DNA of 64,000 nucleotides, taken from assembly GCF_003600645.1 (NCBI RefSeq), contig NZ_CP032482.1:1240001-1304000 (forward strand), in the 5' to 3' direction. The stretch comes from Yersinia rochesterensis (lineage in GTDB: Bacteria; Pseudomonadota; Gammaproteobacteria; Enterobacterales; Enterobacteriaceae). Below, in pieces: positions 56,898 through 61,087 of the stretch (position 1 is the first letter of the stretch; every line of letters begins with the position of its first letter). The notes beneath the pieces are model-generated. The model worked only from the letters and a program-made list of their open reading frames with translations, had not been told where the DNA came from and made no database searches. A program made the translations under genes and the position numbers.

Positions 56898-56973
<76 letters not shown>

Positions 56974-57047
56974 ACAAATGTGGTTGTTCGTATTGAATTA
57001 TATGCCATCCACTTATCGAGTTTGAAAACTTTACCAAACAAGAAATT

Positions 57048-57123
<76 letters not shown>

Positions 57124-57293: not shown

Positions 57294-58709
57294 TTATTGC
57301 TGCGCTTCACGCTCACTGATAAAAGCCAGAGCTTTATCAATACGTGCTAGCGAGCGCGCCTGCCCGATGGCATGAACAGTGACATCCATACCCGGTGATT
57401 GGCCTGCGCCAGTGACAGCAACACGCAGCGGCATGCCAACTTTGCCCATACCTACACCTAGCTCATCAGCGGTGCCCTGAATGGCATTGTGAACGTTTTC
57501 AGTCGTCCATTCGGTGATAGCAGCCAGTTTGGCTTTAACTGCCTCCAGGGGCTGACGGGCCACAGGGCGCAAATGTTTTTTCGCCGCGTCTGCATCGAAC
57601 TCATCAAACTCTTCATAGAAATAGTGGCAAGATTCGGCCATTTCTTTTAATGTCTTACAGCGCTCACCTAATAACTTAACTATCTCGGCCAACTCAGGGC
57701 CATTGCGAGTATCAATACCCAACTGCTCAACCTGCCATGACAAGTGAACTGCAACCTGTTCTGGCGGCAAGCTATTGATATAGTGATGATTCAGCCATTG
57801 TAGTTTTTCAGTATTGAAGGCACTGGCAGATTTGCTGACCGCATCCAGTGTGAATAGCTCGGTCATCTCAGCAACAGAAAATATTTCCTGATCACCATGA
57901 GACCAGCCCAGGCGGACCAGGTAGTTCAACAGCGCTTCTGGCAGATAGCCGTCATCGCGGTATTGCATCACACCGACCGCGCCATGGCGCTTAGACAGTT
58001 TTTTGCCGTCATCACCCAAAATCATTGAAACGTGGGCATATTCAGGAACCGGCGCGCCCAGCGCTTTCAAGATATTAATCTGGCGCGGGGTATTATTGAT
58101 ATGGTCTTCACCACGGATAACATGGGTGATTTCCATATCCCAGTCATCAACCACCACGCAGAAGTTATAAGTCGGCGAACCATCGGTACGGCGGATAATT
58201 AGATCATCCAGCTCTTGGTTGCTGAATTCGATTGGGCCACGGATTTTATCATCGAAAATAACCGAGCCTTCCTGTGGGTTACGAAAACGCACGACAGAAG
58301 GTTCATCAGCACCATGGGTACACTGGCTATCGCGGCAGCGGCCATCGTAGCGGGGTTTTTCACCATTGGCCATTTGGGCTTCGCGCAATTCATCCAGACG
58401 CTCTCTGGAGCAATAGCATCTATAAGCAGTGCCGTTTTCCAACATTTGGTCAATGACCGCATTGTAGCGATCGAAACGTTTGGTTTGGAAATACGGGCCC
58501 TCATCCCAATCCAGATTTAGCCAGTTCATACCGTCCATAATGGCGTCGATAGCTTCCTGAGTTGAGCGCTCAAGATCAGTATCTTCAATACGCAAAACAA
58601 ATTCACCACCAAAGTGGCGAGTGAACAACCAGGAATACAACGCGGTACGTGCGCCACCGACGTGAAGATAGCCGGTAGGACTGGGTGCAAAACGGGTTTT
58701 GATTTTCAT
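57294..58709 (-). CDS. gltX: Glutamyl-tRNA synthetase
   Basis: A 471-residue class I aminoacyl-tRNA synthetase that charges tRNA-Glu. The HIGH-type motif is in [17 protein letters not shown] and the KMSKS-type motif is KLSKRHGA. A zinc-binding Cys cluster (CYCSRE, CRDSQC) lies near residues 100-130. Length equals E. coli GltX. It is flanked by tRNA-Ala and tRNA-Val genes as in E. coli. Confidence 0.98.
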
Positions 58710-58904
58710 TGGGTTCGATGCCTTATTACGCTACGCCGACCAGCAAAAGCTGGCTGTTGCTCGAAATTCGAAAAAGTAGGCGACATTCTACCACCCTGAG
58801 ACAATTCCTCAACGATGTTACCGGTATGCCAAGGTTCATAGTGGCGATAAATATCGCATCCTGTTTAAATTTGCGGCGAACGATTGTTTTCGTTTTAAAA
58901 ACCG

Positions 58905-58932
58905 TTGACTCACTTCGAACTATCCCTATAAT
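58905..58932 (+). promoter_or_regulatory. Promoter of the tRNA-Val/Lys operon
   Basis: A -35 TTGACT (58905-58910) and a -10 TATAAT (58927-58932) are 16 bases apart. A GC-rich discriminator (GCGACTCC) follows, typical of stringently controlled stable-RNA promoters. Confidence 0.85.
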
Positions 58933-58952
58933 GCGACTCCAACAACACGGCG

Positions 58953-59028
58953 GGGCGATTAGCTCAGTTGGTAGAGCATCTCCTTTACACGGAGGGGGTC
59001 ATCAGTTCGAATCTGGTATCGCCCACCA
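58953..59028 (+). tRNA. valU: tRNA-Val (TAC)
   Basis: A 76-base tRNA with encoded CCA. The anticodon stem-loop CTCCT-TTACACG-AGG region shows anticodon TAC. First of three identical copies. Confidence 0.97.
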
Positions 59029-59082
59029 AACTCGACGTGTTATAAAGTAAATGAAATACAAAGCATTAAATGAGATAGATGA

Positions 59083-59158
59083 GGGCGATTAGCTCAGTTG
59101 GTAGAGCATCTCCTTTACACGGAGGGGGTCATCAGTTCGAATCTGGTATCGCCCACCA
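59083..59158 (+). tRNA. valX: tRNA-Val (TAC), second copy
   Basis: Identical to the copy at 58953, with a 54-base spacer. Anticodon TAC, CCA encoded. Confidence 0.97.
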
Positions 59159-59197
59159 CTCATCTCTCATTGTTTGAAGTATCAAAGTAGTAAAAGT

Positions 59198-59273
59198 GGG
59201 CGATTAGCTCAGTTGGTAGAGCATCTCCTTTACACGGAGGGGGTCATCAGTTCGAATCTGGTATCGCCCACCA
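59198..59273 (+). tRNA. valY: tRNA-Val (TAC), third copy
   Basis: Identical to the other two, with a 39-base spacer. Anticodon TAC, CCA encoded. Confidence 0.97.
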
Positions 59274-59299
59274 CTTTTATACTTTCAGCATTATATAAT

Positions 59300-59375
59300 G
59301 GGTCGTTAGCTCAGTTGGTAGAGCAGTTGACTTTTAATCAATTGGTCGCAGGTTCGAATCCCGCACGACCCACCA
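59300..59375 (+). tRNA. lysV: tRNA-Lys (TTT)
   Basis: A 76-base tRNA, the last of the Val-Val-Val-Lys operon as in E. coli. The anticodon loop CTTTTAA gives TTT. The 3' part (59358-59375, including CCA) is copied twice downstream as part of the tandem repeat. Confidence 0.97.
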
Positions 59376-59725
59376 TTATATCTAGTATCTTATTAAATCC
59401 CTCAAACTCAGAAGTTGCATACTACACGATATCGTGTGGGTGAGATCCTGCGTTCAGGTTCGAGCCGAGCGAAGCGAGACAGCAACGCTTTAGCGTTGAC
59501 CCGAAGGGCGAGGCCCGCGGCCGAGTCATCCCGCACGACCCACCATTATATCTAGTATCTTATTAAATCCCTCAAACTCAGAAGTTGCATACTACACGAT
59601 ATCGTGTGGGTGAGATCCTGCGTTCAGGTTCGAGCCGAGCGAAGCGAGACAGCAACGCTTTAGCGTTGACCCGAAGGGCGAGGCCCGCGGCCGAGTCATC
59701 CCGCACGACCCACCATTATATCCAG
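59361..59725 (+). repeat. Tandem 170-bp repeat carrying tRNA-Lys 3' ends
   Basis: Two identical units (59361-59530 and 59531-59700) and a third truncated copy (59701 to about 59725). Each begins with CCGCACGACCCACCA, the tRNA-Lys acceptor 3' strand with CCA. Each complete unit has a 14-base palindrome ACACGATATCGTGT (59424, 59594), a hairpin CAACGC-TTTA-GCGTTG (59483, 59653) and a GGCC-CGC-GGCC hairpin near its end. In total the 18-base tRNA tail occurs three times. Confidence 0.97.
59376..59715 (+). ncRNA. Candidate rtT-like processed RNA downstream of tRNA-Lys
   Basis: Each unit after the tRNA ends in a tRNA-like CCA tail. Processing of the operon transcript at these tails would release about 170-nt structured RNAs. 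E. coli tyrT has the same design: ~178-bp repeats with 19 bases of tRNA-Tyr 3' end, giving rtT RNA. Homology to rtT is not shown; only the arrangement matches. The region is not terminated until beyond the repeat. Confidence 0.5.
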
Positions 59726-59859
59726 TACCTTAGTAACCCCCCCAAAACTTCCAAATAGCTATTTCCCCCATTTCTTTTTACCGACTTATATCTTTAGCTT
59801 TTTAACCTGCCAATAAGCATCATTACATCAAATAGCATGCCCTCGAATCACAGGCATAA

Positions 59860-59883
59860 AAAAAGGCGCCGTAGCGCCTTTTT
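59860..59883. terminator. Terminator of nupC (bidirectional)
   Basis: Perfect ten-base stem AAAAAGGCGC/GCGCCTTTTT with loop CGTA. It lies 20 bases past the nupC stop and could also end read-through from the tRNA operon. Confidence 0.92.
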
Positions 59884-59902
59884 AGAGATTATTTTCTGAT
59901 AC

Positions 59903-61087
59903 TTAGAGTACCAGGCCCGCGATAGACGCAGACAGCACACTGACCAGTGTAGAGCCGTACAGCAGCTTCAAGCCAAAACGAGAAACGACATTACCTTGGT
60001 GCTCATTCAGGCCTTTAATCGCACCGGCGACGATGCCGATGGAAGAGAAGTTAGCGAATGAAACCAGGAATACGGACAGAATACCCACACTACGTGGTGA
60101 CAATTCTGATGCCACTTTCTGCAAGTCCATCATGGCCACAAATTCGTTAGAAACCAATTTGGTTGCCATTATACCGCCGACTTGCAAGGCTTCATGAGCA
60201 GGAATGCCCATTACCCAAGCAAACGGGAAGAAGACATAGCCCAAAATACCCTGGAAGCTAATACCAAACAGCAGGCTAAACAGAGCATTCATCGCAGCAA
60301 TCAATGCGATAAAACCAATCAGCATTGCTGCTACGATAATGGCAACTTTGAAACCGGCCAAGATGTATTCACCCAGCATTTCAAAGAAGCTTTGACCTTC
60401 ATGCAAGTTGCTCAGCTGTAACTCTTCTTCATCCTCAGCTTTATACGGGTTGATTAGCGACAACACGATAAAGGTGCTGAACATGTTAAGCACCAGCGCG
60501 GCGACCACGAATTTCGCATCCAGCATTGACATATAAGCACCGACAATTGACATCGAGACTGTCGACATTGCCGTTGCTGCCATGGTGTACATGCGTTTTT
60601 CAGACATTTTGCCTAAAATATCTTTATAGGCGATGAAGTTTTCAGATTGGCCCAGAATCAGTGAACTGACTGCGTTGAATGATTCCAGCTTACCCATGCC
60701 GTTAACTTTGGACAATAAAGTCCCAATAATACGAATAATGACGGGCAGAACTTTAATGTACTGCAGAATACCAATGAGAGCAGAAATAAAGACGATAGGA
60801 CACAGCACTCTCAGGAAGAAGAATGCGAGGCCTTTATCCCCCATGTTACCGAAGACAAAATCAGTGCCGGTAGCAGCGAACCCCAGTAATTTGTCGAAAA
60901 AGCCCGCGAATCCTTTCACAAAACCTAATCCAACTTCTGAATGGAGGAAGAAGTACGCCAGCAACACTTCAATAACCAATAATTGAATAACAAACCGAAT
61001 GCGGATGCTTTTGCGATCTTTGCAGATAACAAGAGCCAATATGGCCACTACGACTAAGGCCAACGCAAACTGTAGAATATGGGACAT
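59903..61087 (-). CDS. nupC: Nucleoside/proton symporter NupC
   Basis: A 394-residue concentrative nucleoside transporter of the inner membrane, preferring pyrimidine nucleosides and adenosine in E. coli. It is hydrophobic throughout, with blocks [37 protein letters not shown] and [18 protein letters not shown]. Length is near E. coli NupC (400). Expression in E. coli depends on CRP and CytR; a CRP-like site lies upstream here. Confidence 0.96.

What the first reader, a model, noticed from the sequence alone, without database searches (positions are those of the whole stretch)
59361..59725. 170-bp tandem repeat built from the tRNA-Lys 3' end, an rtT-like arrangement
Seen in the sequence: two identical 170-bp units plus a truncated third, each opening with the last 15-18 bases of the tRNA-Lys gene including CCA. 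They contain a 14-base palindrome and several hairpins. Established: the E. coli tyrT operon carries about 178-bp repeats with 19 bases of tRNA-Tyr 3' end, and these give the rtT RNA. Inference: an independent or related RNA is made here from the Val-Lys tRNA operon. The perfect identity of the units suggests recent amplification or gene conversion.
Basis: partly seen in the sequence, partly recalled or inferred. Interest (0 to 1): 0.85.

Follow-up and report, generated by a model that had tools for sequence, protein, structure and literature searches.

The report
RtT tRNA-tail repeats after tRNA-Lys
Behind a lysine tRNA gene of a Yersinia genome sits a short tandem array of a known bacterial repeat (RtT); each unit ends with a copy of the tRNA's own last 18 letters, and comparing genomes suggests that repeat and tRNA exchange these endings.

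Summary
Observation confirmed. Two identical 170-bp units (59376-59545, 59546-59715) and a truncated third follow tRNA-Lys; each ends in tRNA bases 59-76. Both are RtT (Rfam RF00391, 107.6 bits, gathering score 45), so related to the E. coli tyrT repeats. The genus is Yersinia; the genome holds 16 more RtT matches, 13 of them one identical tandem. Family-wide: (1) units end with the neighbouring tRNA from T-loop position 58/59 to CCA, seen with Lys, Tyr, Ser, Pro, Arg, Gln, weakly Glu and Ala; 46 of 160 loci showed no such unit. (2) Many carry an inverted copy of that tRNA's T-arm. (3) Unit tails equal their own tRNA's variant in 134 of 158 units, another same-isotype variant in 0. (4) Units are lost exactly at tail repeats; in one clade the tRNA apparently inherited the unit's tail. 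(5) In 44 of 119 first units a terminator-like hairpin separates tRNA and RtT. No RNA was measured. A new member of a known kind; the tail exchange is the interesting part.

The parts
58905..58932 (+). sigma-70-type promoter-like site (TTGACT-16-TATAAT) upstream of the Val-Lys tRNA operon
   Evidence: 11 of 12 consensus matches; 2 such sites found on both strands of 58700-60000, 1.7 expected in shuffles
58953..59273 (+). three tRNA-Val(TAC) genes of the operon
   Evidence: ARAGORN; Rfam tRNA
59300..59375 (+). tRNA-Lys(TTT) gene; its last 18 bases (59358-59375) are the tail repeated in each unit; T-stem reads GCAGG/CCCGC (A51.C63 mismatch)
59376..59545 (+). RtT unit 1 (170 bp): trailer, inverted T-arm, direct T-arm half, core, tail with CCA
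   Evidence: RF00391 match 59420-59545, 107.6 bits
59546..59715 (+). RtT unit 2, identical to unit 1
   Evidence: RF00391 match 59590-59715, 107.6 bits
59716..59736 (+). truncated third copy (trailer only, diverging)
   Evidence: (repeat ends 59736)
59434..59441 (+). segment p of unit 1, complementary to tail bases 60-67 (closing helix P1); same in unit 2 at 59604-59611
59444..59452 (+). segment a of unit 1, complementary to the tRNA T-stem 5' strand; with p an imperfect inverted T-arm; unit 2 at 59614-59622
59455..59463 (+). segment b of unit 1, direct copy of the T-stem 5' strand and T-loop up to A58 (CAGGTTCGA); unit 2 at 59625-59633
59464..59527 (+). structured core of unit 1 between b and the tail; short stems at 59483-59498 (CAACGC/GCGTTG), 59500-59508 (CCC/GGG), 59512-59522 (GGCC/GGCC)
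59528..59545 (+). tail copy (tRNA positions 59-76 incl. CCA) ending unit 1; unit 2 tail at 59698-59715

Best explanation
This is an RtT array (RF00391) on the valine-lysine tRNA operon. Probably the operon transcript runs through it, and each unit is released by the same 3' processing that matures tRNA-Lys, giving an RNA of about 160-170 nt that ends in CCA; this step is inferred from E. coli rttR. In each unit an inverted T-arm (p, a) precedes a direct T-arm whose T-loop holds a core of about 65 nt (b, core, tail). As RNA, p pairs with the tail and a pairs with b or with the tRNA's own T-stem. What mainly shapes and maintains the array is DNA-level exchange: the 18-base tails are direct repeats with the tRNA gene itself, so slippage or recombination between them adds and removes whole units exactly at the CCA, keeps the tails equal to the tRNA, and can pass a unit's tail into the tRNA. 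Shown by comparison: anatomy, tail tracking, exact losses, copy-number variation. Inferred: the direction of exchange, transcription here, and that no specific regulatory target is needed for persistence.
For: RF00391 matches. In 114 of 160 genus and order loci, 136 tRNAs (Lys 54, Tyr 36, Ser 16, Arg 14, Pro 11, Glu 3, Ala 2) are followed by a copy of their own tail; the exact match from CCA is 18 or 19 bases in 159 of 190 units and never exceeds 19, and 18 or 19 in 35 of 41 units of 40 class-level loci. Tail variants: 134 of 158 units equal their own tRNA's variant, 0 of 158 another same-isotype variant, 24 neither; permuted within isotype mean 68.4, maximum 86 of 2000; restricted to variants within the finder's tolerance 132 of 156 own, 0 other. 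Exact losses: E. coli 98203 has no annotated RtT at the two tyrT positions and each tRNA CCA joins a sequence like the one that follows the units in MG1655; genome G014 has none while its sister G015 has one. Tail inheritance: G016 has a unit tail ..ACGGCCCACCA followed by TTATGTAGCAGTACAAGT; G002 and G005, in the same supported clade, lack RtT there and their tRNA-Lys ends ..ACGGCCCACCA followed by the same TTATGTAGCAGTACAAGT. Unit number: 18 matches in the own genome incl. 13 identical units; 0 to 8 annotated units in the E. coli tyrT regions opened. E. coli rttR is annotated as 171 nt and ends at the repeat CCA.
Against: No RNA and no recombination was measured. 46 of 160 loci gave no own-tail unit: 26 have a tRNA within 420 nt upstream (decayed tails, or duplicates of arrays counted elsewhere), 9 have a core without a tRNA near, 7 gave no core motif, 4 lie at a contig start. 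Structure is conserved beyond sequence (second core stem of at least 4 bp in 95 of 118 parsed cores, 24 different stems; covariation for several helices but not for one proposed helix, passages of PMC7657543 and PMC8250186), which points to selection and not only exchange. RtT RNAs of Actinobacillus gave Northern signals (PMC4986893, passages). The tail finder allowed at most 2 mismatches in 14 bases, so absolute match rates are biased upward. The direction of the G69 exchange is not proven: one lysT tRNA of G005 also carries G69.
Confidence: 0.6

Rival explanations
1. RtT is mainly a regulatory or housekeeping small RNA released from tRNA transcripts, possibly acting on the stringent response or on its own tRNA through the antisense T-arm; the repeats are kept for RNA dosage.
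For: Annotated as a small RNA (rttR; 'RtT sRNA'); Northern and RNA-seq signals for two RtT RNAs in Actinobacillus and conservation in Pasteurellaceae (PMC4986893 passages); P1 and the second core stem conserved. The segment upstream of b pairs with its own tRNA at mean -28.7 kcal/mol against -18.6 for other isotypes and -13.4 for shuffles; own beats at least 90% of other tails in 131 of 160. Where unit b differs from the tRNA, a pairs better with the tRNA in 43 of 52.
Against: No RtT is annotated in the tyrT regions opened of two E. coli strains (98203; AVS0713; the rest of these genomes was not checked), and laboratory strain OV2 lost one tRNA-Tyr gene and RtT (PMC12584984 passage). 44 of 119 first units lie beyond a terminator-like hairpin, although small RNAs made by terminator read-through are known (PMC8144298, abstract passage). 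Unit number is very variable.
Confidence: 0.25
2. RtT derives from, or still is, a mobile element that enters tRNA genes at the T-loop (position 58/59), like integrases that use tRNA 3' ends; the 18-19 base tail is its target duplication.
For: The same 58/59 boundary at several isotypes; nearly full or half tRNA genes interrupted by the core exactly there (L104, L106 tRNA-Lys; L154, L155; Arg units); core tree needs 17 isotype changes where 5 is the minimum.
Against: No element body in the 170-bp units. The window's Lys-type unit matches only 1 of 50,697 phage and 3 of 72,556 plasmid records (other isotypes were not searched), and the two plasmid matches opened lie in the ybgF/cpoB to nadA/pnuC context. 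Isotype is strongly clustered on the core tree (17 changes against 65.2 shuffled). Split tRNAs are also explained by deletion between the two GGTTCGA copies. At the window locus losses, not gains, are inferred.
Confidence: 0.1
3. RtT serves as a transcription end or buffer region of tRNA operons (E. coli tyrT is recalled to end Rho-dependently in its repeats).
For: RtT follows the tRNA directly; some rtT-like sequences were linked to attenuator-like BIMEs (PMC2965389 passage).
Against: 43 of 136 arrays are followed within 150 nt by another co-oriented tRNA, 11 of them tRNA-Tyr arrays followed by tRNA-Gly; in the own genome this lies upstream of a gene that I recognise by reading as tufB-like. 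Others lie behind a terminator-like hairpin already.
Confidence: 0.05

Closest known systems
RtT RNA family, Rfam RF00391; E. coli tyrT/tyrV repeats (rttR)
   Same: Same core and structure by covariance model (107.6 bits), tandem units of about 170-178 bp after a tRNA, each ending in the tRNA tail with CCA.
   Different: Follows tRNA-Lys, not tRNA-Tyr; MG1655 has one unit between tyrT and tyrV and three after tyrV, here two after the Val-Lys operon and 13 identical ones at the lysT-like cluster. ORFs of 35-89 aa overlap the units here; similarity to E. coli tpr was not tested.
rtT RNA as VNTR in Salmonella Paratyphi A (PMC2658671, table passage seen)
   Same: A 175-bp tandem-repeat difference in rtT RNA between strains, as here among species and strains.
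   Different: The passage seen lists the difference only; nothing on tail exchange.
tRNA-3'-end direct repeats of integrated islands (recalled)
   Same: A copy of the tRNA 3' end of about 18 bases lies downstream of an intact tRNA.
   Different: No integrase or cargo in the units; about 65-nt structured core; tandem units; inverted T-arm.
Small RNAs from tRNA or rRNA transcript spacers (3'ETS-leuZ, recalled; rrA/rrB/rrF, PMC8144298 abstract passage)
   Same: RNA by-products of stable-RNA operons, some beyond a first terminator.
   Different: No repeated tRNA tail and no antisense T-arm in the passages seen.

Membership tests
RtT (RF00391) | Covariance-model score above the curated gathering score (45 bits) | tested here: met
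   Two matches of 107.6 bits over the full model, 1-130
RtT (RF00391) | Lies downstream of a tRNA and ends with a copy of that tRNA's 3' end and CCA | tested here: met
   18-base tail at 59358, 59528, 59698
RtT (RF00391) | Closing helix between an upstream segment and the tRNA tail | tested here: met
   Model alignment; GTGTGGG against CCCGCAC, one G-U pair
RtT (RF00391) | Released as a processed RNA of about 171 nt ending at the repeat CCA | not testable with these tools
   No expression data; for E. coli rttR from its annotation
E. coli tyrT repeat | Host tRNA is tRNA-Tyr | tested here: not met
   Host is tRNA-Lys(TTT); the own genome also has a Tyr-type unit at C1:4042166
tRNA-integrated mobile island | Integrase gene or cargo between tail repeats | tested here: not met
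   Units are 170 bp; of the ORFs that begin in a unit none exceeds 57 aa
Mobile element on phages or plasmids | Carried by phage or plasmid records | tested here: not met
   For the window unit 1 phage and 3 plasmid records match; 2 of the 3 plasmid matches opened, both in chromosomal gene context; the phage record is an unverified contig without annotation; the third plasmid match was not opened

The most novel reading that the evidence does not exclude
Across Gammaproteobacteria RtT is a tRNA-tracking satellite: each unit holds an antisense T-arm and a sense T-arm split by a core, re-written to match whichever tRNA it sits behind, and it can write its tail back into that tRNA, so that short repeats next to tRNA genes steer tRNA 3'-half evolution. 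Its RNA may pair with unfolded copies of its own tRNA.
Probability: 0.25. Interest if true: 0.8.

Novelty: new member of a known kind. Interest (0 to 1): 0.5.

Why it matters
RtT is annotated automatically as a small RNA with an uncertain function. If units and tRNA really exchange tails, tRNA 3' ends (T-stem, acceptor stem) do not evolve alone but together with a neighbouring repeat, which would explain concerted changes. The locus-specific antisense T-arm makes a testable prediction for tRNA folding or quality control. It also warns that 'RtT sRNA' labels may mark DNA that is hardly transcribed at some tRNAs.

Tried and rejected
Independent origin of the Yersinia repeat: rejected by the RF00391 score. 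Decoy attachment site for islands: I opened E. coli regions whose tyrT match broke off at the tRNA or array end; L9, 2020N21-110-15 and PEC148 simply continued into narI, AVS0713 and CFT073 carry a gene block without an annotated integrase in the stretch shown, and FDAARGOS_536 has an IS4-family transposase gene after its RtT; dropped. Column-based covariation with MAFFT and RNAalifold failed because the alignment was too gappy (118 sequences, 217 columns, 5 pairs); replaced by stem detection per core (118 cores parsed, 2 not), in which the second stem was strong but the first (37 of 118 at 4 bp or more) and last (71 of 118) were weak against shuffles. Single-sequence folding of one unit alone was not better than shuffles (z -0.93); tRNA plus unit was (z -2.97). 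P1 compensation at C63: one Yersinia Lys lineage has G opposite C63, the lysT-type units keep A (A.C mismatch), so I do not claim general compensation (read). For the Yersinia Arg units p and a do not follow the tRNA (Arg duplex mean -14.9). In the antisense test only 79 of 194 units had a unique anchor; Gln (b better in 2 of 2) and Lys (1 better with b, 1 equal, of 2) did not follow the trend. Same-isotype variants reach 14 of 20 inverted T-arm matches in 39%, so that test separates isotypes better than variants. Units shorter than 90 nt or 100 nt and repeats of identical units were dropped before counts; arrays identical to one already counted were dropped. A first try at listing tRNA-Lys tails returned nothing because of a wrong pattern length and was repeated. 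Papers: the original rtT paper is not held; ten searches of an open-access library only, and none of the listings or passages seen described tail exchange or an inverted T-arm; subscription papers were not searched, and no paper was read whole.

Full report
What is there. Behind the tRNA-Lys gene (59300-59375) of a Val-Val-Val-Lys operon lie two identical 170-bp units and a truncated third. Both units match Rfam RF00391 (RtT) over the whole model with 107.6 bits against a gathering score of 45. The neighbours are a gltX-like ORF upstream on the other strand and a nucleoside-permease-like (nupC-like) ORF on the other strand downstream; these names are from reading the ORFs and recall, not from a family search. 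The genus is Yersinia: a 55-base stretch of the unit type occurs in named Y. nurmii and Y. ruckeri records; the window's own species was not identified.

The rest of the genome. The own genome has 18 RtT matches: two in the window, one after tRNA-Tyr in a Thr-Tyr-Gly-Thr tRNA cluster upstream of a gene that I recognise by reading as tufB-like, and 15 in a cluster of four tRNA-Lys genes (upstream of a gene that reads as nadA-like), of which 13 are one tandem of identical 169-bp units. The window unit and the 13-fold unit agree at 153 of 172 aligned positions: arrays are uniform inside and different from each other.

Anatomy of a unit. Reading from the tRNA CCA: trailer; segment p, complementary to tRNA 60-67; segment a, complementary to the T-stem 5' strand; segment b, a direct copy of the T-stem 5' strand and T-loop to A58; a core of about 65 nt with short stems; then tRNA 58/59-76 with CCA. 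p plus a is an inverted copy of the T-arm: rc(47-66) is matched at 14 or more of 20 positions in 109 of 194 distinct units (83 of 158 order, 26 of 36 class), against 9.4% for other-isotype tRNAs and 39% for same-isotype variants. In some Ser-type units of distant Gammaproteobacteria the inverted copy is nearly exact, T-loop included (18 of 20 in three units; sequences). b matches the local tRNA 49-52 in at least 3 of 4 positions in 109 of 144 units with an anchor, against 20.3% for other isotypes; p forms at least 7 of 8 pairs with local 60-67 in 98 of 143, against 21.8% (163 distinct units of 90 nt or more).

The tail boundary. In genus and order loci, 136 tRNAs of seven isotypes are followed by 190 units with their own tail; the exact match is 18 or 19 bases in 159 of 190 and never longer than 19. 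These lie in 114 of 160 loci; in the other 46 no such unit was found: 26 have a tRNA within 420 nt upstream (decayed tails, or duplicates of arrays counted elsewhere), 9 have a core and no tRNA near, 7 gave no core motif and 4 lie at a contig start. In 40 class-level loci, 29 have such a unit (Ser 15, Gln 10, Tyr 4), 35 of 41 units with 18 or 19 bases; 11 loci gave none. Glu (1 of 3 units at 19) and Ala (none at 18 or 19) are weak. The finder demanded near-matching tails, so the informative points are the sharp left limit and the variant test: among isotypes with several tail variants, 134 of 158 units carry exactly their own tRNA's variant, 0 carry another same-isotype variant and 24 neither; shuffled within isotype gives mean 68.4, maximum 86. 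Restricted to variants that the finder could not have excluded, it is 132 own and 0 other of 156.

Turnover at one locus. The downstream flank was found in 25 of 25 genus genomes; tRNA-Lys is linked to it in 18 of the 25 loci. There I count 2 units in two genomes, 1 in eight (one with a partial second, one with a cut tail), composite units in three, decayed ones in two and none in three (read). On a tree of the flanking gene region G014 (none) is sister to G015 (one unit), so a loss is the simplest reading. G002 and G005 (none) group with G016 in a supported clade of five. G016 has a unit tail with G at tRNA position 69, followed by TTATGTAGCAGTACAAGT, while its tRNA has A69; in G002 and G005 the tRNA itself has G69 and is followed directly by TTATGTAGCAGTACAAGT. 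The simplest account is a deletion between tRNA tail and unit tail that left the tRNA with the unit's tail. One lysT tRNA-Lys of G005 also has G69, and the TTATGTAGCAGTACA trailer also follows a lysT tRNA-Lys of G002, so exchange between loci is a further possibility and the direction is not proven.

Strain variation in E. coli. The tyrT region matches 5,391 records (5,375 of 5,426 genomes) with very different coverage. In the rows and strains opened, annotated RtT number in the tyrT region is 4 (MG1655-type row), 0 (98203, AVS0713), 1 (IAL7250, QML220601, FDAARGOS_536, CFT073), 5 (2022N21-074, L9, 2020N21-110-15) and 8 (PEC148). In 98203 both RtT places are empty; the first tRNA CCA is followed by the sequence that follows the unit in MG1655, the second by a closely similar flank. 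Laboratory strain OV2 lost one tRNA-Tyr gene and RtT (PMC12584984, passage). A 175-bp rtT VNTR is listed for Salmonella Paratyphi A and related serovar comparisons (PMC2658671, table passage).

Split tRNAs. In G015 and G016 (L104, L106) a decayed but nearly full-length tRNA-Lys is interrupted by the core exactly between 58 and 59; Lys units L154 and L155 and ten Yersinia Arg units carry tRNA stretches (14-31 bases exact, L106 27) that end at 58. Insertion into the T-loop or deletion between the two GGTTCGA copies would both give this.

Transcription. In the window nothing terminator-like was listed between tRNA-Lys and the units and a good promoter-like site precedes the operon. Elsewhere, a terminator-like hairpin lies between the tRNA and the core in 44 of 119 first units: Ser 16 of 16, Pro 9 of 9, Arg 10 of 12, Lys 9 of 45 (genus 0 of 31), Tyr 0 of 34, Glu 0 of 3; shuffled heads 14 of 595. 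In the class sample it is 11 of 29. 43 of 136 arrays are followed within 150 nt by a further co-oriented tRNA, which speaks against a terminator role. Read-through small RNAs exist (PMC8144298, abstract passage), so position beyond a terminator does not prove silence. RtT RNAs of Actinobacillus were seen on Northern blots (PMC4986893, passages).

Antisense T-arm. The segment upstream of b pairs with tRNA 44-69 at mean -28.7 kcal/mol for its own tRNA, -18.6 for other isotypes and -13.4 for shuffles; own beats at least 90% of other-isotype tails in 131 of 160; in the window -29.8. Where unit b differs from the tRNA, a pairs better with the tRNA in 43 of 52, with b in 4, equally in 5 (79 of 194 units testable, mostly Tyr and Ser, not independent by descent). 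So in Tyr and Ser types a is matched to the tRNA rather than to the unit's own copy, either because DNA copying is templated by the tRNA or because the RNA pairs with the tRNA. My data do not decide.

Origin and spread. The core tree (121 rows, 66 columns, poorly resolved) needs 17 isotype changes where 5 is the minimum and 65.2 is the shuffled mean: mostly inherited per isotype, with some switches. RtT matches at E 0.001 occur in 25 of 25 genus genomes, 62 of 295 order genomes (43 over the family cut-off) and 51 of 274 class genomes (19 over the cut-off); these tallies include the own genome, and the two larger searches used stricter filters. The window's Lys-type unit is nearly absent from phage and plasmid records; other types were not searched there.

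Verdict. The array is an ordinary new member of RtT in a Val-Lys operon. The family-wide picture, a tail-exchanging repeat with an inverted T-arm behind many tRNA isotypes, is not described in the open-access listings and passages that I saw (ten searches), and is worth testing in E. coli K-12.

Noticed in passing
59300-59375 and tRNA-Lys genes of the genus: tRNA-Lys carries an A51.C63 mismatch in the T-stem (GCAGG/CCCGC). The C63 pattern occurs in 23 of 25 genus genomes and the T63 pattern in 0 of 25; 2 genomes matched neither. The Lys loci of other genera that I fetched mostly read T63. One unit at the lysT-like cluster still reads T63.
   Followed up: partly
L019 1372-3568 (G000:C1:1458771-1460967): Thirteen identical 169-bp RtT units in one tandem behind the fourth tRNA-Lys of the cluster.
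   Followed up: yes
L194, L200, L180: Composite units with two different cores in a row inside one tail-to-tail interval.
   Followed up: no
L076, L079, L102, L123, L125, L157, L160, L172, L173: RtT-like core motif without a tRNA within 420 nt upstream; in L079, L123 and L125 tRNA-Lys genes are present in the locus but not upstream.
   Followed up: partly
L223 (Providencia alcalifaciens record NZ_OU659131.1): An aminoglycoside 6-adenylyltransferase gene is annotated between the RtT tail and nadA; described only.
   Followed up: no
L209/L216 (E. coli AVS0713) and L218 (CFT073): A block of desaturase, epimerase and ketosynthase-like genes lies between the tyrT region and narI; AVS0713 has one tRNA-Tyr and no annotated RtT there, CFT073 two and one RtT.
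   Followed up: partly
56898-57123 (-): Two tRNA-Ala(GGC) genes on the opposite strand; no RtT match there.
   Followed up: no
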